From contig MGVS01000040.1 in NCBI GenBank assembly GCA_001800605.1, forward strand, positions 1 to 32,368: 32,368 nt of DNA. The letters are read 5' to 3'. Each line of letters begins with the position of its first letter. The first letter of the stretch is position 1. Origin of the DNA: Elusimicrobia bacterium RIFOXYD2_FULL_34_15. Lineage in GTDB: Bacteria; Elusimicrobiota; UBA8919. A program made the position numbers and the translations under genes. This document shows positions 10,743-31,751 of this stretch, piece after piece. Below the pieces are notes generated by a model. It was not told the DNA's origin. It was given only the letters and a program-made list of their open reading frames with translations, and made no database searches.

Positions 10743-11795
10743 TTAATTGCCTTTTAGTAGGGCGTTGAGTCTTGCAAGGCGTTCTTTTTTTATATTCATT
10801 GGTACATCGTCTTTCATAGAAAAAGCTTTTGTATATTCTCTAGGAGAATACTTAAACGTATATGCCGAAAGGAATCCCACTTTTTTTGTAATTTCTAGTG
10901 TTTCGCTGAAATCTTCGTCTGTTTCAGTAGGAAAGCCCACGATAATATCCGTTGTAAATTTAACATCCGGAATCTTCTTTCTTAATTTCTCAATTATAGA
11001 TAAATATTTCTCTTTTGTATAGTGCCTATTCATAAGTTTTAAAATCTTATCTGAGCCGGATTGTAAAGGAAGATGTATCCGATGCGAGACCTTTTCGCAG
11101 CTTGCGATTGAATCAATAATTTTATCAGACATATCTTTCGGGTGACTAGTCATAAAACCTATTTTTTTTACTTCAGGAATGTCATTGATTTTTACAAGCA
11201 AATCGGCAAAATCGATTCCGCCGAAATTATAGCTGTTTACATTTTGACCGAGTAACGTAATTTCGTATTTTCCGGAATTAGTAAGTTTTTCAATATCCAA
11301 AAGTATTTTTATAACCGGTCTTGATTCTTCGGGGCCGCGGACATAAGGGACAATGCAATACGAGCAGAAATTTGAACATCCCCGTGTTATAGTTATAAAT
11401 TCAGAAAAGGTTTCATTTGTTGTTCTTGATGTTGTATAGTAAAAATCTTTTTTTAGGATTTCCGATATTTTTTCTATTTCATTGGCAGGGATAATATGGT
11501 CTATATAAGGAAATTTTTTCTTAAGACTTTCCTTTAATCGTGATGCAACACAACCCAGCACAACAATTTTTAATTTTTCATTTTTAATTTTTAATTGTCC
11601 TAAGTCGCCTATATAACTAAATGCGCGATCTTCAGCGTGCTGTCTGACTGTGCAGGTATTAATAATGATGATATCGGATTCATTCAGTTGTTCGGTCAAA
11701 GAAAATCCTTTTTCAATCAGTTGCTGTGCAACAGTATCCGAATCTGCCACGTTCATCTGACAACCGAAGGTGCGTATGAAAAACTTAATAGACAT
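10743..11795 (-). CDS. miaB: tRNA-2-methylthio-N6-dimethylallyladenosine synthase MiaB, lacking TRAM domain
   Basis: 350 aa. The N-terminal UPF0004 domain has cluster cysteines C12 (RTFGCQMN), C48 (NTCTVR) and C82 (LGCVASR). The radical-SAM motif is RGCSNFCSYC (C-x3-C-x2-C), followed by IVPYVRGPEESR, the sequence favouring MiaB over other MTTases. It adds the methylthio group to i6A37 made by MiaA. The protein stops after KKERLARLNALL, about where the C-terminal TRAM (tRNA-binding) domain should begin, so it is roughly 80-90 aa shorter than usual. A repeat-like stretch (QLKIKNEKLKIV, 67-78) interrupts the N-terminal domain. Confidence 0.92.
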   Translation of the reverse strand: MSIKFFIRTFGCQMNVADSDTVAQQLIEKGFSLTEQLNESDIIIINTCTVRQHAEDRAFSYIGDLGQLKIKNEKLKIVVLGCVASRLKESLKKKFPYIDHIIPANEIEKISEILKKDFYYTTSRTTNETFSEFITITRGCSNFCSYCIVPYVRGPEESRPVIKILLDIEKLTNSGKYEITLLGQNVNSYNFGGIDFADLLVKINDIPEVKKIGFMTSHPKDMSDKIIDSIASCEKVSHRIHLPLQSGSDKILKLMNRHYTKEKYLSIIEKLRKKIPDVKFTTDIIVGFPTETDEDFSETLEITKKVGFLSAYTFKYSPREYTKAFSMKDDVPMNIKKERLARLNALLKGN

Positions 11796-11946
11796 AGTAT
11801 TATTACATAAACAAATTTAAATTTATTAAACCCTTCCGTAGCTTTAGCGTAGGAGGGTTCATTTGGCAACCGAAAGCTTTTAGGAAAAATAGTTTAATTT
11901 CTTTAATATTTTGCATTTTTATATTTACTCAGCTGAACGTGTATGA
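11796..11946. repeat. Upstream region of miaB with degenerate copy of its own start
   Basis: The gap holds a palindromic block (CCTTCCGTAGC...GTAGGAGGG, 11831-11857) followed by CATTTGGCAACCGAAAGC (11860-11877). The latter resembles the miaB start region (11754-11795) displaced by 106 bp. The same arrangement, better preserved, occurs at 14003-14147. Confidence 0.65.
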
Positions 11947-13794
11947 TTATTTTATAGGTAATTTTATCTTAAAAGTTGTTCCCTTACCAATTTCGCTTTC
12001 AACTTCAATAGTCCCGTTGTGTTTCTGGACTATTTCATAGCATAAACTCAGACCCAATCCTGTTCCTTTTCCTACTTCCTTTGTTGTAAAAAATGGCTCA
12101 AATATATGTTTTTTTACTTCTTCTGTCATTCCTTTCCCTGTATCTGATATATCTATCTCTATTTGATTTTCAGTTTTTTTTGTAGTAATTGTTATTCTCC
12201 CACTCTTTGGCATTGCATCTATTGCATTGTTACACAAATTCATTATTACTTGTTGTATCTGATTCTTATTCGTTGTTGTCTGTGGTATATCTTTACCATA
12301 CTCCTTAATTATCTCTACACCCTTTACTCTTACTTGTGCTTCTACTTCTACTAACATCAGTGTATCTTCTATCACTGTGTTTATATTTACTATCTCTGCT
12401 TGCGTCTTGTCTGCCCTTGAAAATATTAACAAATCCCCTACTAATTTTTTACATCTTATTGCCTCTCGTTCTATTGATTTTAATGGCATATACAAAGGAT
12501 TATCTTCCGTTATGTCTTTTACAACTATCTGAGAAAACCCAAGAATCACTCCCATCGGATTGTTTATTTCATGTGCTACACCTCCTGCTAATTGTCCTAC
12601 TGCTGCCATCTTTGTTGTTTGAACTAATTTCTCTTGAGAATCCTTAAGTTCTTTTGTCCTTTCTTCAACTTTTTGTTCTAATGTTCTATTGTATTCTATA
12701 ATATCTTCCTTGGATTTTTTCAAATCTTTTATCATTTTATTGAAAGAATTAGATAATTCTTCAATTTCATCCCCAGTTTTTATATCAAGTAAGACATCCA
12801 TATTCCCCTGTGCAATATAAACCGAAGCTTCCCTCAATTTCATTATAGGGATGGAAATGCTGCGGGAGATTTTGAAGCTTAAATAAAATACTATAACAAT
12901 AAAGAGAAAAAGCAATCCTAGTTGTATATTCCTCATTTTATTTATAGTAGTTTTAATTCTAGTAGTAGGTACCAAATTACTCAGCATTCCAGTAATCTTC
13001 TCGCTATCGTCTCTTATCGGTAAAAAACTAGATTCATAATCAATTCCGTTTATTTTCATTTCTGTCGAATATGTTTCTCCCTTTTCTAAAACCTTGCTCA
13101 AAATTTTGGGATCATCGATTGTTGCCATGTCTGCTCTCTCAAATCCGACAATAGTTGAAGCTAAAACCTCATTACCGTAATAAATTATAGTGTCTGTTCC
13201 AATTGCGTTCTTAATATCATCAACTAGAAGAAGACTAAATCCAACATTTACCGTTCCAATAAGATTGTTGGCATCATCATATATTGGAGCTGCTGTATTG
13301 AGCCAAAAATCAGTTTTATGGGCACCTTCCGGTTCGAGTTCTAAAAAAGTAACTGCTTTGCCGGTCGAAAGAACTTCGCTAATAGTTTTTCTATGTTTCC
13401 TATCCTCCCCAAATTTTATCTTTTCCAATGACGATTTTTCAGCATCAGCAATCAAAAATCCATTTTTATCTGTGATATCAAGGCATTCAACTCCAAATTC
13501 TTGATATAGAGGGAAGTATAATTTATTCATGTAATTCTGTGTTTTATGATTGTTCCCCTTGAGTAATAGACTTTTTAGCATTTCATCGTTCTGGAAATTT
13601 TTTGTAAGAAATCTCCCTTTTTTTATATATCTGTTGTATAAATTCATAGCTGACCTTTGCTCTTTTTCCAGGTTTAAGTGTATCTCATCATGTAATGACT
13701 TAGTTGCTCTATTTACCGAAACAGTTGTCAATAACAATATCGGGATAACTGCAGTTGCAAGGAATCCAAAGGTCAATTTTTGTTTTATTCTCAT
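11947..13794 (-). CDS. Membrane sensor histidine kinase (Cache-HAMP-HisKA-HATPase)
   Basis: 615 aa from the ATG at 13794, which has a good AGGAGA Shine-Dalgarno; an in-frame extension to 13848 lacks one. Order: TM1 (about 9-28), an extracytoplasmic Cache-like sensor region (about 30-285), TM2 (about 290-308), HAMP, a coiled coil rich in Glu/Lys, HisKA with H408 in GGVAHEINNPMG, and HATPase_c with NLCNNAIDA, DTGKGM and GTGLGLSL. No response regulator adjoins it, so it is an orphan or works with a distant partner. A hemerythrin gene lies upstream, and the intervening DNA is full of duplicated fragments. Confidence 0.92.
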   Translation of the reverse strand: MRIKQKLTFGFLATAVIPILLLTTVSVNRATKSLHDEIHLNLEKEQRSAMNLYNRYIKKGRFLTKNFQNDEMLKSLLLKGNNHKTQNYMNKLYFPLYQEFGVECLDITDKNGFLIADAEKSSLEKIKFGEDRKHRKTISEVLSTGKAVTFLELEPEGAHKTDFWLNTAAPIYDDANNLIGTVNVGFSLLLVDDIKNAIGTDTIIYYGNEVLASTIVGFERADMATIDDPKILSKVLEKGETYSTEMKINGIDYESSFLPIRDDSEKITGMLSNLVPTTRIKTTINKMRNIQLGLLFLFIVIVFYLSFKISRSISIPIMKLREASVYIAQGNMDVLLDIKTGDEIEELSNSFNKMIKDLKKSKEDIIEYNRTLEQKVEERTKELKDSQEKLVQTTKMAAVGQLAGGVAHEINNPMGVILGFSQIVVKDITEDNPLYMPLKSIEREAIRCKKLVGDLLIFSRADKTQAEIVNINTVIEDTLMLVEVEAQVRVKGVEIIKEYGKDIPQTTTNKNQIQQVIMNLCNNAIDAMPKSGRITITTKKTENQIEIDISDTGKGMTEEVKKHIFEPFFTTKEVGKGTGLGLSLCYEIVQKHNGTIEVESEIGKGTTFKIKLPIK

Positions 13795-13875
13795 ATTATT
13801 TATTCTCCTATATTTCCAATATTTTAATCGTTGCGGAATGCCACGCACTTGTTATCTTCCATTTTCCAGCGATTG

Positions 13876-13900
13876 ATCCGCCACTGAATCGTCGGTGGAT
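13876..13900. repeat. 25-bp palindromic element
   Basis: ATCCGCC and GGTGGAT can pair over 7 bp with one G-U. The core resembles, in reverse complement, the TCCGCCA...TGGCGGA element at 25314-25336 and the one at 17475-17490, so it belongs to a dispersed family. Confidence 0.6.
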
Positions 13901-13930
13901 AGGTATTTCCTTTGTATTCCCCTTGAAATT

Positions 13931-13974
13931 ATACTCAAAAACGTTAATAAATTACTGTATTTTTCAGTTTTCCC
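13931..13974. repeat. 44-bp repeat, copy 2 (upstream of histidine kinase)
   Basis: It shares all but a few positions with 14707-14751, including the block CTCAAAAACGTTAATAAATT. Both copies lie upstream of a gene (kinase here, hemerythrin there) in the same orientation. Confidence 0.8.
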
Positions 13975-14002
13975 CTCGTTGAATGGTTTTACAGGTTCAG
14001 AG

Positions 14003-14147
14003 CATCTGACAGCCGAAAGTGCGTATGTAAAACTTAATAGACATATATAACTCAAGAGTAAATTAATTTTAATAAATCCTTCCGTAGCCTTGGCGAAGGA
14101 GGATTCATCTGAAAGCCAAAAGTGCGTATATAAAACTTAATAGACTT
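14003..14147 (-). pseudogene. Two tandem copies of the miaB 5' end
   Basis: Positions 14044-14003 and 14147-14106 match the first 14 codons of miaB (11795-11754) with 3 and 6-7 differences in 42 nt. The first encodes MSIKFYIRTFGCQM and then hits a stop. The second has AAG in place of the ATG. Spacing between copies is 103 bp, with a TCCTTCCGTAG...GAAGGAGGA palindrome between them. These are non-functional fragments. Confidence 0.8.
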
Positions 14148-14155
14148 ATTTAAAA

Positions 14156-14686
14156 TTATTCTAAATTATCTACTATGGTTTTATATTTTTCATGAATAAG
14201 TTTTCTATCAAATTCCCAGGATTCCTGAAGCATATTATCTTTTTCTTCCTTACTAAAATATTCCATTATAGGAATAAAAAAATGTTTGTCCTCTTTTTCA
14301 ATGTGCACTGGATAAAATTCAATTAATTCTTTCATAATCCCAATTATTTCATTAATTGAATCTTTACTTCCATTTAAGTAATTTTCTTTGGCAAGGACAA
14401 GCCTTTTTGTAGCTTCTCTCCCCCAAATGTGTTCTTTGATCAATTCATCCATGATTTTCTTATGTTCGTTTGTAATTTTTTTCTTTTTGAGTTCCCGGAA
14501 AAGAATATCTTCTTCTTTTCCATGATGGCATCTATCGGCATATGTTTTAATGAAATCAACTGCAGTGTCAATGAGACTAACATTTAATATATTTGTTTCA
14601 GAAATACTGATTAATTTCATATTGAGAATCTTTATCATTCTTTCAATCAGCCGATGTTCTATCATCAGGGGTCCAATTGGCAGCAT
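14156..14686 (-). CDS. Hemerythrin HHE-domain protein
   Basis: 176 aa, all-helical and soluble. Candidate iron ligands follow the HHE pattern: H11 (IEHRLIE), H54/H55 and E58 (CHHGKEED), H86 (KEHIWG), then H128, E132 and H135 (HIEKEDKHFF). These proteins bind a di-iron centre and sense or buffer O2 or NO, or act in iron homeostasis. The start has a strong AGAGGAG Shine-Dalgarno sequence. It is 73 nt downstream of rsgA, separated by a 45-bp repeat that also precedes the histidine kinase gene. A functional link with that kinase is only inferred from position. Confidence 0.9.
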   Translation of the reverse strand: MLPIGPLMIEHRLIERMIKILNMKLISISETNILNVSLIDTAVDFIKTYADRCHHGKEEDILFRELKKKKITNEHKKIMDELIKEHIWGREATKRLVLAKENYLNGSKDSINEIIGIMKELIEFYPVHIEKEDKHFFIPIMEYFSKEEKDNMLQESWEFDRKLIHEKYKTIVDNLE

Positions 14687-14706
14687 TTTATACTCCTCTT
14701 TATAGT

Positions 14707-14751
14707 ATGCTCAAAAACGTTAATAAATTACTATATTTTTCAGTATTTCCC
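14707..14751. repeat. 45-bp repeat, copy 1 (upstream of hemerythrin)
   Basis: Near-identical to 13931-13974, in the same orientation, and located 8 nt beyond the rsgA stop codon. Confidence 0.8.
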
Positions 14752-22888: not shown

Positions 22889-23399
22889 ACCAACCTCCGC
22901 CTAAATGATGAACCGTTTTTATTTTGTCGGTATTTATCGATTCATCAAAATATTTTTCTTCCACATCAGCATATACGACTTTAGAAATAAAAAACAAAAC
23001 ATCAGAATATCTATATTTTTTTACTACTTTACATTCCAGATGAGCAAAGCATTCTTTAATTTTTGGAGCTTTTACAATTTTGGAATTTATAGTTGTAAGC
23101 TTTGATGCTTTAAATTTGTTAATATTTTCTCCGGTATGGTTACCGCAATATAAAATACTACGCATTAGTTTTTTGTCAGGTATGTTCATAACAAATTCTT
23201 TTGATTCTTTTATTGATTTTTGAGAATACGCCTGATTTCCTACTGCGATTGCCACAAGTGGAGGTTCGGAGTTTACTACAGAAGTCCATGCAATTGTCAT
23301 AATATTAGGTTTGTTGTTTTTATTTATAGTTGTTATTAAAGCAATAGGCCCATGATTTATTAATCTATAAGCGATTTCCGGCTTAATTTTCTTTAACAT
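22857..23399 (-). CDS. Flavin reductase-like FMN-binding protein
   Basis: 180 aa, split-barrel flavin reductase fold. Visible are ITTINKNNKPNIMTIAWTSVVNSEPPLVAIAV (written in segments in the family as the FMN-phosphate strand), the S-Q-K-S-I-K-E helix, and a FVMNIPDKKL stretch followed by G-x-H-T-G-E-N. Members bind FMN non-covalently and reduce it with NAD(P)H, or act as small redox proteins. The start sits directly after a GTAACGGG microrepeat that also encodes the end of rdgB. Coupling with larE by overlap suggests a shared redox or cofactor role, which is inference. Confidence 0.82.
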   Translation of the reverse strand: MLKKIKPEIAYRLINHGPIALITTINKNNKPNIMTIAWTSVVNSEPPLVAIAVGNQAYSQKSIKESKEFVMNIPDKKLMRSILYCGNHTGENINKFKASKLTTINSKIVKAPKIKECFAHLECKVVKKYRYSDVLFFISKVVYADVEEKYFDESINTDKIKTVHHLGGGWFAEIGKRFKE

Positions 23400-23402
23400 T
23401 TA

Positions 23403-23432
23403 CTCGTTACTCATTACCCGTTACCCGTTACG
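23403..23432. repeat. GTAACGGGTAATGAGTAA microrepeat at the rdgB/flavin-reductase junction
   Basis: On the minus strand an iterated GTAAYGRG unit runs through the last codons and stop of rdgB into the 14-nt gap. An opposite-orientation copy occurs at 28428-28458. Confidence 0.7.
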
Positions 23433-25284: not shown

Positions 25285-25427
25285 CTCCCGTAGGTCTCGC
25301 CAAGGATTTCTTGTCCGCCAACGATTTAGTGGCGGAACTGGCGGACCGAAGGCCTCGCCAACGGTTTAGTGGCGGGCTTGCCCCACAATGGTGGGTCTAA
25401 TGCCTCTCCCATGTTCACAGGGCGGGC
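25285..25427. repeat. Palindromic repeat cluster upstream of the CsgG-like gene
   Basis: Several GC-rich hairpins: TCCGCCA/TGGCGGA (25314-25320 with 25330-25336), a second TGGCGGAC at 25339, and CCCAC/GTGGG near 25382-25395. It shares GGCCTCGCCA and GTGGCGGGCTTG with 17455-17510. Its left edge CCTCCCG supplies the Shine-Dalgarno of the lipoprotein gene. Confidence 0.75.
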
Positions 25428-25435
25428 AATATTTT

Positions 25436-28291
25436 TTACTTAATATCTAAATTTTTTACTATTTCTTCCAGTTTTTTCTTTTTATCGTATAATTCCTGAA
25501 GTTTTTGTTTTACACGTTCAACTTCTTCAGGATTTGCTTTTTCTAAGAAGTTTTTATTTGAAATTTTCGCTGCACAGACGTTTGCTTCCTGATTGATTTT
25601 GTGTATTTGTGATTCAAGACGTTTTTTTTCTTTTTCCAAGTCTATTTTACCTTCTAAAAGAACAAAAATTTCAATATTACCGATAATTGCCGAAGCAGAT
25701 AATTTGGGTTTTTCTGAAGTTTTTGAAAATTTGATTTCTTTAACTTTTGCCAGAGAATTTATATATTGTTTATTTTCATTTATTATTTTTTCAGATTCAT
25801 CGGAAGAAATTTTTATGATTATATCTACTAAATCCGATTGTTTAACGTTCATTTCAGAGCGGATATTTCTAATTGCGGTAATAACTTCTATAACTTCCCG
25901 GATTTCTTCATCAGCAGTTTTATCAGTTTCAGATTCATCATATTTCGGATAATCGGATATCATAATACTTTTACTTTGTTTTTTTAGATTTTGAAATATT
26001 TCCTCGGTTATAAACGGCATTATCGGATGCAAAAGTTTAAGTATTTTCTCAATTATTTCAATATGAACTTTTTGTGTAGTTGATTTTGTCTTTTCATCAT
26101 TGCCGTACAGACGGGTTTTAGAAAATTCCACATACCAGTCGCAATATTTTGACCAGATAAATTCATATAAGAGACGCGAAGCTTCTGAAGGATTGTAATC
26201 CTCAATTGCTTTTGTAACATTTTTTATAGTTAAATTTAACTCTGAAAGAATCCATTTATCGGTTAATTCTAAATCATCGAGATTCTTCGCGGAGCTCCCG
26301 CCAGAGGCGAGGCTCGCCAAGGGCGGCAGAATGACGGCATTTTGGTCTAAGTTCATCATAACGAATCTTGAAACATTCCATAGCTTATTGGCAAAATTTC
26401 GTGCCATTAAGAAATTTTCATCTGAAATCTGCATATCACGTCCGGGAATCCCCTGGTATGCAAGTGCAAAACGCAGTGCATCTGTTCCGAATTTTTCCAT
26501 AATTCCTAATGGGTCAATAACATTGCCAAGTGATTTTGACATTTTTTTGCCCTTGGAATCACGGACGATACCGTGTATGTAAACATCATGGTAAGGAACA
26601 TTATTTCTAAATTCAAGACCCATCATAATCATTCTTGCAACCCATAAATAAAGTATTTCATGGCCTGTAACCAAAACATCGGTTGGATAGTAATATTTTA
26701 ACTCTTTTGTTTCTTCGGGCCAGCCAAAAACAGACATAGGCCATAGTGCCGAAGAAAACCAAGTATCAAGCACATCAGGATCGCGAATAAAATCGGATTT
26801 CCCGCACTGCGGGCATTTTTCAGGCTGTTTTTCAGAAGCAAAAACACCTTTTGAATCAATATTTATGTTTCCTACTTCATAATCTTTAACTTTTTCCTTT
26901 ATTTGCTGAGGAGTAAGTTTCAAAGTTTCTAACATCCATTTTATACTGACAGCTTTATCATCCAGAGTGCCAAGTATATGTTCTCCTGCGCAATTCATGC
27001 AATACCAAAGCGGAATCTGATGTCCCCACCATATTTGGCGGGAAATGCACCAATCTTTAAGATTTTCCAACCATAAAAGATAGGGTTTTAGCCACTTTTC
27101 AGGGAAGAATTTTGTCTCTTCAGTTTTCGCAGATTCCATTGCCCGTTTTGCCATGCCGTTCATCTTTAGGAACCATTGTTTTGAAATTAACGGTTCAGTG
27201 GCTGTATCGCACCTGTAACATCGAGTGATCGGCAGTACATAATTCTCTTCTTTTTCAAGCAATTCTTTTTCTTTAAGTTTTTCAATAAGTATTTTTCTTG
27301 CTTCATAACGGTCTTTGCCTATTAATTCATTTGCTTCAAAGTTTTTAATTGGCTGTCCGTTAAGATCATTAATAATAAAACTTGTAATTTTTGCTTCTTT
27401 GTCAATCGCATGAATCAATACAAGATTATGTCTTCTTGCTGTTTCTGCATCGTTGCGGTCGTGAGCAGGTGTTATTTTTACTGCACCGGTTCCGAATTTA
27501 GGGTCAACCATTTCATCGGAAATAATCGGGATAATACGGTTTACAAGCGGAAGAACAGCATTTTTACCTATGAATTTCTTATATCTTTCGTCATTTGGAT
27601 TAACCGCAACTGCGGTATCGCCTAACATCGTTTCGGGCCGAGTTGTTGCAACGATTATTAATTTGTCAGATTCGTTCTGAATAGGATATTTAATATACCA
27701 AAGCTTTCCTTTTTCGTCTTCCTGTTCAACTTCGCTTTCATTTAAAGCTGTTCCGCATCGGGGGCACCAGTCAACAATACGTTCTCCGCGATAAATAAGT
27801 CCTTTTTCATATAATTTGGTAAATGCGTAGTTTACAGACTTTGAACGCCTATCATCCATTGTGAAACTTGTCTTGTCCCAGTCGCATGAACACCCCAATT
27901 TTTTAAGTTGATATAAGATAGTATCTCCGGTTTCTTTCCTCCATTTCCACATTTCCTCAAGGAACTTATCACGTCCGATATTTTCCCGCAATATACCAGC
28001 TTTTTTCAATATTCTTTCAACCACATTCTGAGTAGCTATTCCGCCATGATCAGTGCCAGGAACCCAACAAGAATTGAAGCCATTCATCCTTTTAAAGCGA
28101 ATAATTATATCTTGAAGTAAATTATTAAGTGCGTGACCCATATGAAGCGATCCGGTTACGTTTGGGGGAGGTATTACAATCGTGAATGGTTTGGAATTAT
28201 TAGGTTCGGAATGGTAAAGTTTGTGTTCTTCCCAGAAATTAAGCCATTTTTTTTCAATTTCTATTGGTTCGTAGGTTTTAGAGATTTCCAT
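25436..28291 (-). CDS. valS: Valyl-tRNA synthetase
   Basis: 951 aa, class I synthetase. HIGH-type motif HMGH (50-53), zinc-binding-like pairs DWCPRCG and KCPQCG, the editing-domain VATTRPETMLGDTAVAV, the KMSKS motif (583-587), an anticodon-binding domain and a C-terminal coiled-coil arm (LEKEKKRLESQIHK...) are all in order. It charges tRNA-Val and edits Thr-tRNA-Val. Between the catalytic and anticodon domains (about 653-672) lies a Pro/Ala/Gly/Ser-rich insert, VILPPLASLASGGSSAKN, encoded by a dispersed palindromic repeat. A promoter lies at 28376-28404. Confidence 0.97.
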   Translation of the reverse strand: MEISKTYEPIEIEKKWLNFWEEHKLYHSEPNNSKPFTIVIPPPNVTGSLHMGHALNNLLQDIIIRFKRMNGFNSCWVPGTDHGGIATQNVVERILKKAGILRENIGRDKFLEEMWKWRKETGDTILYQLKKLGCSCDWDKTSFTMDDRRSKSVNYAFTKLYEKGLIYRGERIVDWCPRCGTALNESEVEQEDEKGKLWYIKYPIQNESDKLIIVATTRPETMLGDTAVAVNPNDERYKKFIGKNAVLPLVNRIIPIISDEMVDPKFGTGAVKITPAHDRNDAETARRHNLVLIHAIDKEAKITSFIINDLNGQPIKNFEANELIGKDRYEARKILIEKLKEKELLEKEENYVLPITRCYRCDTATEPLISKQWFLKMNGMAKRAMESAKTEETKFFPEKWLKPYLLWLENLKDWCISRQIWWGHQIPLWYCMNCAGEHILGTLDDKAVSIKWMLETLKLTPQQIKEKVKDYEVGNINIDSKGVFASEKQPEKCPQCGKSDFIRDPDVLDTWFSSALWPMSVFGWPEETKELKYYYPTDVLVTGHEILYLWVARMIMMGLEFRNNVPYHDVYIHGIVRDSKGKKMSKSLGNVIDPLGIMEKFGTDALRFALAYQGIPGRDMQISDENFLMARNFANKLWNVSRFVMMNLDQNAVILPPLASLASGGSSAKNLDDLELTDKWILSELNLTIKNVTKAIEDYNPSEASRLLYEFIWSKYCDWYVEFSKTRLYGNDEKTKSTTQKVHIEIIEKILKLLHPIMPFITEEIFQNLKKQSKSIMISDYPKYDESETDKTADEEIREVIEVITAIRNIRSEMNVKQSDLVDIIIKISSDESEKIINENKQYINSLAKVKEIKFSKTSEKPKLSASAIIGNIEIFVLLEGKIDLEKEKKRLESQIHKINQEANVCAAKISNKNFLEKANPEEVERVKQKLQELYDKKKKLEEIVKNLDIK
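26278..26335. repeat. Palindromic repeat inserted in frame in valS
   Basis: This 58-bp GC-rich block begins CGAGATTC and ends GGCGGCAGAATGAC, with CTCCCGCCA-A/G-AGGCGAGGCTCGCC in between. The same start, middle and end occur at 31591-31695 in intergenic DNA. It keeps the valS frame open. Confidence 0.82.
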
Positions 28292-28404: not shown

Positions 28405-28548
28405 TAAAATAAAGACTGAAAAAAAAGTAACGAGTAATGAGTAACGGGTAATGAGTAAAAAGTTTATATTTTGAAATCTGTGTAATCGTCGTTCAAAATC
28501 TGTGTAATCAGTGATTGTTAGGTTTTTAACAATCACATAAAAAATAGC

Positions 28549-31357: not shown

Positions 31358-31751
31358 ACTAGATAATTATACCTTTATTTTTACAATTTTCAATAAAAAA
31401 AACTATTGCTAAATTATAAATTATATCGCAATAATAGTCAACGACACTTTTCCACTTTTTCATGTCATTTTTCTACTATGTGTATTTTGGTATTTTTAAA
31501 GAATTTCGGTAGGTATTAATAAAAATAGTTCTACTATTCTGATGTCACCCTGAGGTTGCCGTGGCGACCGAAGGGTCTCGTTGTTAAAAACGAGATTCCC
31601 TGCCTGCCGTTAGGCAGGTTCGTTTCGCTTACGCTACTCTCCCGCCAAAGGCGAGGCTCGCCTATTTAAATTTAAATGAAAGGCGGCAGAATGACTTCAA
31701 CGTCAATCACTATTTGCTAATCCCTAAATTCCATGAACCATTAACTATGAA
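31358..31751. other. 394-bp intergenic region with composite palindromic elements
   Basis: Besides the promoter, 31540-31695 is a mosaic of GC-rich pieces: CTCGTT/AACGAG hairpin (31577-31594), CCTGCCT/AGGCAGG (31599-31618) and CTCCCGCCAAAGGCGAGGCTCGCC ending GGCGGCAGAATGAC at 31695, the last shared with valS. Inside it sits ATTTAAATTTAAAT. The rest is AT-rich; no gene is seen. Confidence 0.7.
31413..31441 (-). promoter_or_regulatory. Sigma70-type promoter for the GGDEV protein gene
   Basis: On the minus strand: -35 TTGACT (31441-31436), 17-nt spacer, -10 TATAAT (31418-31413). The leader is about 50 nt. A second TATAAT lies closer to the start codon, without a good -35. Confidence 0.75.

What the first reader, a model, noticed from the sequence alone, without database searches (positions are those of the whole stretch)
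26278..26335. Dispersed palindromic repeat translated inside ValS
A GC-rich block in valS has the same start, middle and end as an intergenic mosaic at 31591-31695 and adds about 19 residues (VILPPLASLASGGSSAKN) between the catalytic and anticodon-binding domains. This parallels Rickettsia palindromic elements, in which a selfish repeat is tolerated in frame at a protein surface. Such elements in an essential synthetase outside Rickettsiales would be notable.
Basis: partly seen in the sequence, partly recalled or inferred. Interest (0 to 1): 0.75.

Follow-up and report, generated by a model that had tools for sequence, protein, structure and literature searches.

The report
Translated palindromic repeat in ValS linker
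A small hairpin-shaped repeat scattered through this Elusimicrobiota genome also lies, in frame, inside the essential valyl-tRNA synthetase gene and about ten other genes; this is a new variant of repetitive palindromes already known to be tolerated in bacterial proteins, with the twist that the same loop of the enzyme carries different repeats in related bacteria.

Summary
The block (26278-26335, minus strand) encodes residues 653-671 of the only full-length ValS. It belongs to a real dispersed family: 51 copies of GTCAYYCTG-N(0-30)-AGRRTC in the genome, none for the reversed control. Its arms covary (48 of 51 complementary; shuffled mean 22, maximum 37) around exchangeable inner hairpins. 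About 15 of 58 copies lie in frame inside longer ORFs.

The insert sits in the linker between catalytic and anticodon-binding domains, the only internal stretch modelled below pLDDT 50. The sister species has the same ends with another core at the same site. Another genus has a GTCATTGCG element there, and two genomes carry an unrelated dispersed repeat (CAGATTACRCAGAT). The linker is thus a recurrent repeat site.

The Rickettsia-like reading is right in kind. Its novelty premise is not: in-frame REPs, even in tRNA synthetases, were reported outside Rickettsiales in 2013 (CGTC-tagged REPs, to which RPE-4 and RPE-6 belong). This family resembles CGTC REPs (inverted pairs, no transposase association) but differs in stem, tail and tag. 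How it moves is inferred, not shown.

The parts
25436..28291 (-). valS, valyl-tRNA synthetase, 951 aa; intact HMGH (residue 50) and KMSKS (residue 583) motifs
26278..26335 (-). in-frame dispersed palindromic element encoding VILPPLASLASGGSSAKNL (residues 653-671)
26327..26335 (-). 5' end of the element, GTCATTCTG (GTC tag plus left arm ATTCT)
26298..26327 (-). core hairpin GCCGCC-CTT-GGCGAG-C-CTCGCC-TCT-GGCGG, lying between the GTCATTCT arm and GAGCTCCGCGAAGAATC
   Evidence: similar cores at 31642-31687 and C1:13570
26278..26286 (-). 3' end of the element, AGAATCTCG (right arm AGAAT plus tail)
31544..31580 (+). intergenic copy of the ACCCT/AGGGT subfamily, GTCACCCTGAGGTTGCCGTGGCGACCGAAGGGTCTCG

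Best explanation
The block is one copy of a dispersed REP-like hairpin element (GTC - 5-bp arm - GA - exchangeable inner hairpin - GA - complementary arm - TCG tail). SHOWN: it is repeated genome-wide, its arms covary, and it is read in frame in the linker, predicted disordered, between the catalytic and anticodon-binding domains of the single full-length ValS. INFERRED: an element entered this linker in the common ancestor of the two sampled species of the genus and was kept because the linker tolerates any open frame without loss of function; the inner hairpin then changed in one or both lineages by recombination or template switching between copies. INFERRED and weaker: spread occurs through a single-stranded DNA hairpin acted on in trans by a host or foreign enzyme, since no associated transposase was found. 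The insert is most likely neutral in the protein.
For: Repeat family: 51 copies, reversed control 0; 48 of 51 arm pairs complementary, shuffled mean 22, maximum 37 in 10,000 shuffles; mean inner stem 2.6 bp against 0.37 for shuffled cores. In-frame copies in other genes with Pfam/NCBIfam identities such as HATPase_c, PMT_2, Methylase_S, N6_N4_Mtase, DapF, and RibE in the sister. Comparison: relatives lack the block; about 90 other bacterial ValS linkers run nearly always 39-46 residues over the same stretch, against 53 here. Structure: the only internal segment below pLDDT 50 is 660-668, between helices 624-646 and 676-697. Common ancestry with turnover: G001 ValS has GTCATTCTG-ATCCCGACTTGTCGGGAGA-ATAATCACGAT at the same site; the PMT and TPR2 orthologues also hold related but different elements in the same loops in both species.
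Against: No empty site exists within the genus, so the insertion event itself is not seen and no target duplication could be defined. The elements differ so much in core that two independent insertions at the same site cannot be excluded. Predicted folding energies of single copies are not better than shuffles, so the hairpin rests on covariation. Native linker residues appear replaced rather than simply interrupted. No expression data; the genome is a draft in 119 contigs.
Confidence: 0.8

Rival explanations
1. Independent insertions: the ValS linker is a hot or highly permissive site, and G000 and G001 acquired their elements separately, as G004, G005 and G007 did with other repeats.
For: G004 carries a GTCATTGCG..GCAATC element there in another frame while its congener G007 lacks it; G005 and G007 carry the unrelated CAGATTACRCAGAT repeat there, in G005 with the 22-bp spacing seen elsewhere in that genome.
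Against: G000 and G001 share orientation, frame, 9 of 9 left-end bases and most right-end bases at the same position, and a shared remnant is also seen at TPR2 (CAGGGTGACGGCAAA in both), which favours one old insertion for this pair.
Confidence: 0.25
2. The insert is functional: selection keeps it as a regulatory RNA hairpin in the valS mRNA or as a useful linker extension.
For: Arms are well conserved in both species although the surrounding ValS DNA is only 86% identical.
Against: Length, core and sequence differ between sister species; other relatives have none; predicted RNA folding of the ValS copy is no better than shuffles (z -0.78); the same elements sit in unrelated genes.
Confidence: 0.07
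3. Elements are mobilised by RAYT (Y1) transposases, as GTAG REPs are.
For: Five PF01797 genes in this genome and several in most family members; inverted pairs with tags outward resemble REPINs (the resemblance is from general knowledge).
Against: No GTCATTCTG, GTCACCCTG or GTCATTGCG motif within the roughly 1.5-kb flanks of the four own RAYT loci examined; G008 has 47 copies and G023 has 34 with no PF01797 match, and G031 has 8 matches with no copies.
Confidence: 0.15
4. Assembly artefact: the repeat was wrongly joined into valS.
For: Draft assembly; N-gaps occur at repeat sites in G001, including one inside a gene.
Against: Frame and both flanking domains are intact, and a separate assembly of the sister species has a related element at the same position.
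Confidence: 0.03

Closest known systems
CGTC-tagged REPs (Di Nocera et al. 2013, PMC3733652), including Neisseria dRS3
   Same: Short palindromes with an unpaired GTC-containing tag at one end, stem beginning with an A-T pair, inverted pairs, heterogeneous stems and loops, no linked transposase, in-frame copies inside genes
   Different: The base before GTC is T or A more often than C; tail is TCG/TCA rather than CCA; stem is 5 bp plus GA/GA plus a variable inner hairpin instead of 8-9 continuous bp; Elusimicrobia are not mentioned in the paper's main text
Rickettsia palindromic elements RPE-4, RPE-6, RPE-7 (Ogata et al.; PMC3767692)
   Same: In-frame in many genes, solvent-exposed sites, shared ATGAC end motif (reverse complement of GTCAT), different element groups near the same position in orthologues
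   Different: RPEs are described as 100-150 bp, against 25-60 bp here; sequences otherwise not compared here
GTAG REPs / REPINs with RAYT
   Same: Dispersed hairpins, inverted pairs, some in genes
   Different: No GTAG tag; no association with RAYT genes found
Intragenic MITEs (ERIC, RU, QMITE; review PMC10969869)
   Same: Non-autonomous, occasionally fused in frame
   Different: Longer (70-300 bp) with terminal inverted repeats resembling degenerate insertion sequences

Membership tests
CGTC-tagged REP | Terminal unpaired CGTC (variants TGTC, CCTC) | tested here: inconclusive
   GTC always present by the search pattern; preceding base T 23, A 14, C 11, G 3 of 51
CGTC-tagged REP | Stem of 8-9 bp with AT in first and second position | tested here: not met
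   5-bp arm (mostly AT first) then a GA/GA interruption and a variable inner stem; 46 of 51 have the GA..GA step
CGTC-tagged REP | Short unpaired tail, mostly CCA | tested here: not met
   The three bases after AGRRTC are TCG 24, TCA 6, TCT 6 of 51
CGTC-tagged REP | No dedicated transposase | tested here: met
   No copies next to the own RAYT genes examined; many copies in genomes without a PF01797 match; other transposase families not tested
CGTC-tagged REP | Predominantly one type of inverted dimer | tested here: met
   Close neighbouring pairs in the place list are mostly + then - (C55, C76 twice, C97, C114, C118), rarely - then + (C1) (in G001 C9, C34, C48)
CGTC-tagged REP | Some units in frame inside genes over 120 aa | tested here: met
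Rickettsia palindromic element | Palindromic repeat in frame in unrelated genes at surface sites | tested here: met
   (site in the structure examined for ValS only)
Rickettsia palindromic element | Sequence homology to an RPE family | not tested
   Only the shared ATGAC motif was noted from PMC3767692
GTAG REP / RAYT system | GTAG tag and REPs flanking a RAYT gene | tested here: not met
   Conserved end is GTC; RAYT flanks lack the element
MITE | Target-site duplication and terminal inverted repeats of an insertion sequence | tested here: inconclusive
   No empty sites in near relatives; sister genome too diverged or gapped at the compared sites

The most novel reading that the evidence does not exclude
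The interdomain linker of ValS is a recurrent landing site where unrelated dispersed repeats (GTCATTCTG elements, GTCATTGCG elements, CAGATTACRCAGAT repeats, and probably others in distant phyla) are captured and then swapped in place, so that an essential enzyme's linker is rewritten again and again by noncoding repeats, the inner hairpin being exchanged as a module while it is being translated.
Probability: 0.4. Interest if true: 0.65.

Novelty: new variant of a known kind. Interest (0 to 1): 0.48.

Why it matters
It extends in-frame REP capture to a phylum not discussed in the main text of the 2013 survey, and gives a compact system (one linker, one bacterial family, at least three repeat families) in which to ask how such repeats enter essential genes, whether the site or only tolerance is special, and how hairpin cores are exchanged without a linked transposase.

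Tried and rejected
RAYT link: looked for repeats around PF01797 genes and compared counts over 295 genomes; no association seen. Empty intergenic sites in the sister species: about 28% of G001 was compared; sites were too diverged or fell in N-gaps, so no target duplication could be read. Folding energy as evidence for the hairpin: not better than shuffles. Literature search for the element's sequence itself: nothing relevant. Two in-ORF hits (L237 at 5172, L228) were set aside as probably upstream of the true start codon, and L187 as a chance pattern match. PMT and TPR2 look at first like independent insertions in the two species, but alignment shows shared orientation or a shared remnant.

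Full report
WHAT IS THERE. The window lies in a 2.47-Mb draft genome of 119 contigs. Its phylum is Elusimicrobiota: a genome placed in the same phylum, G029, has its ValS on a contig of 138,379 bases, exactly the length of the named Elusimicrobium minutum contig found by the GTDB scan, with an identical linker sequence, and the best named ValS relatives are Endomicrobia. valS is intact (951 aa, 1155 bits to the NCBIfam equivalog, HMGH and KMSKS motifs) and is the only full-length copy. The block at 26278-26335 encodes residues 653-671.

IT IS A REAL DISPERSED REPEAT. The 76-base query gives 19 places in the genome, the best besides itself at E 6e-13. The ends GTCATTCTG and AGAATC occur together 26 times, and the generalised pattern GTCAYYCTG-N(0-30)-AGRRTC 51 times, against zero for the pattern read backwards. 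The two arms change together: TT with AA 25 times, TC with GA 19, CC with GG 4, and 3 exceptions; shuffling partners gives 22 matches on average and never more than 37 in 10,000 trials. Inside the arms come GA and GA, and then an exchangeable hairpin: ACGAAGT, ACCGAAGGT, GTCACAGAC, TCCCGATTCATCGGGA, AGTCGCCACGGCGACT and others. The short core GCGAAGC is, from general knowledge and not tested here, the sequence of an unusually stable DNA mini-hairpin, which would fit a single-stranded DNA form. Predicted folding energies of single copies are not exceptional.

HOW THE ValS COPY PARSES. Read on the minus strand it is GTCATTCT-[GCCGCC CTT GGCGAG C CTCGCC TCT GGCGG]-GAGCTCCGCGA-AGAATCTCG. Without the bracketed hairpin it has the form of the ordinary 25-base element, so it may be one hairpin nested in another; a similar core appears in the mosaic at 31590-31695 and at C1:13570.

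IN OTHER GENES. Of 58 copies examined, about 15 lie inside longer ORFs in frame: two in a PMT_2 membrane protein, two in the HATPase_c domain of a histidine kinase, two in a DNA methylase, one in a Methylase_S (HsdS) protein, one each in three TPR membrane proteins, several in a large surface protein and its paralogue; a GTCATTGCG-type element lies in DapF (equivalog, 251 bits). In the sister species two copies lie in riboflavin synthase and others in the PMT and TPR2 orthologues. Paralogue comparison within the genome shows one such insertion against an uninterrupted loop (TPR1 against TPR3). Most copies are outside genes, as expected if most insertions into genes are lost (inference).

THE ValS LINKER AS A SITE. 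Over about 90 other bacterial ValS sequences the stretch from RNF.NK to just past the conserved W is nearly always 39-46 residues; here it is 53. In the sister species G001 (ValS 91% identical) the site holds GTCATTCTGATCCCGACTTGTCGGGAGAATAATCACGAT: the same ends, another core, same orientation and frame. In G004, another genus, it holds GTCATTGCGAGCCCGTACTGACGAAGCAATCTC in a different frame, while its congener G007 does not. G005 and G007 carry CAGATTACRCAGAT there, a motif found 38 and 19 times in those genomes and 36 times in the window's genome, with no control hits; in G005 the two ValS copies keep the 22-bp spacing seen at other loci. Odd linkers in more distant ValS genes (L117, L060, L024, L085) also look repeat-derived, but this was not tested in their genomes. 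On the AlphaFold model (mean pLDDT 88) the insert holds the only internal segment below 50 and joins two confident helices.

AGE AND TURNOVER. Three loops (ValS, PMT, TPR2) are occupied in both species of the genus by related but different elements; ValS and PMT copies share orientation, and TPR2 shares the remnant CAGGGTGACGGCAAA. The simplest reading is old insertion followed by replacement of the inner part. Independent insertion remains possible, as G004 shows that it happens at this site.

HOW IT SPREADS. The family is patchy over 295 genomes of the phylum: from none in about half to 134, 144 and 157 copies. Y1 transposase genes do not track it: G008 and G023 have 47 and 34 copies and no PF01797 match, G031 has eight matches and no copy, and the four own RAYT loci examined lack neighbouring copies. 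A trans-acting enzyme or template switching at hairpins is therefore proposed, as inference only.

COMPARISON WITH WHAT IS KNOWN. The closest kind is the CGTC-tagged REP superfamily (PMC3733652): tagged palindromes, inverted dimers, no transposase, and in-frame copies in genes. That paper lists tRNA synthetases with intragenic REPs in X. oryzae, E. lithoralis and S. alaskensis, names RPE-6 and RPE-4 of R. conorii as CGTC-1 and CGTC-4, and reports REPs at about the same site in recB of two Xanthomonas species. The R. japonica paper (PMC3767692) reports the ATGAC end motif and different RPE groups near one position in orthologues. Two defining features of CGTC REPs, the continuous 8-9 bp stem and the CCA tail, are not met here, so this is filed as a related variant and not as a member of the four described families.

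VERDICT. A correct and well-spotted observation of a known kind of event in another phylum, with an unusual local feature: one essential linker occupied by different repeats in different relatives.

Noticed in passing
G005:C8:34411-34446 and G007:C193:781-794 (ValS linkers): The ValS linker contains an unrelated dispersed repeat, CAGATTACRCAGAT, present 19-38 times in these genomes and 36 times in the window's genome.
   Followed up: partly
L180:162-1034 (own genome C69) and L327:1281-2066 (sister G001 C48): DapF carries an in-frame GTCATTGCG-type element and riboflavin synthase of the sister species carries two elements in frame.
   Followed up: partly
L117, L060, L085 (ValS linkers of a Desantisbacteria, a Deltaproteobacteria and an Omnitrophica MAG): Long or odd linkers such as GACGCACGACGCACGACG and GTCAGAAGTCAGAAGTCGGAAGT look like noncoding repeats; in L117 and L060 the same motif occurs a second time within the ValS match range.
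   Followed up: partly
window 25300-25430: The gap downstream of valS is a mosaic of GGCGGAC and GGCGGGC hairpin repeats of another family.
   Followed up: no
window 23395-23431 and 28434-28470: Inverted pair of GTAATGAGTAACGGGTAATGAGTAA-type simple repeats flanking a stretch that includes valS.
   Followed up: no
window 11754-14168 and 13911-14751: Repeated blocks CATCTGACAGCCGAAAGTGCGTATG (three copies) and AAAACGTTAATAAATTACTGTATTTTTCAGT-like (two copies), mostly between genes.
   Followed up: no
L246:6420-6548 (G001 C3): The sister assembly has an N-gap just where the own genome's TPR3 gene carries an element, suggesting a repeat there that the assembler could not resolve.
   Followed up: no
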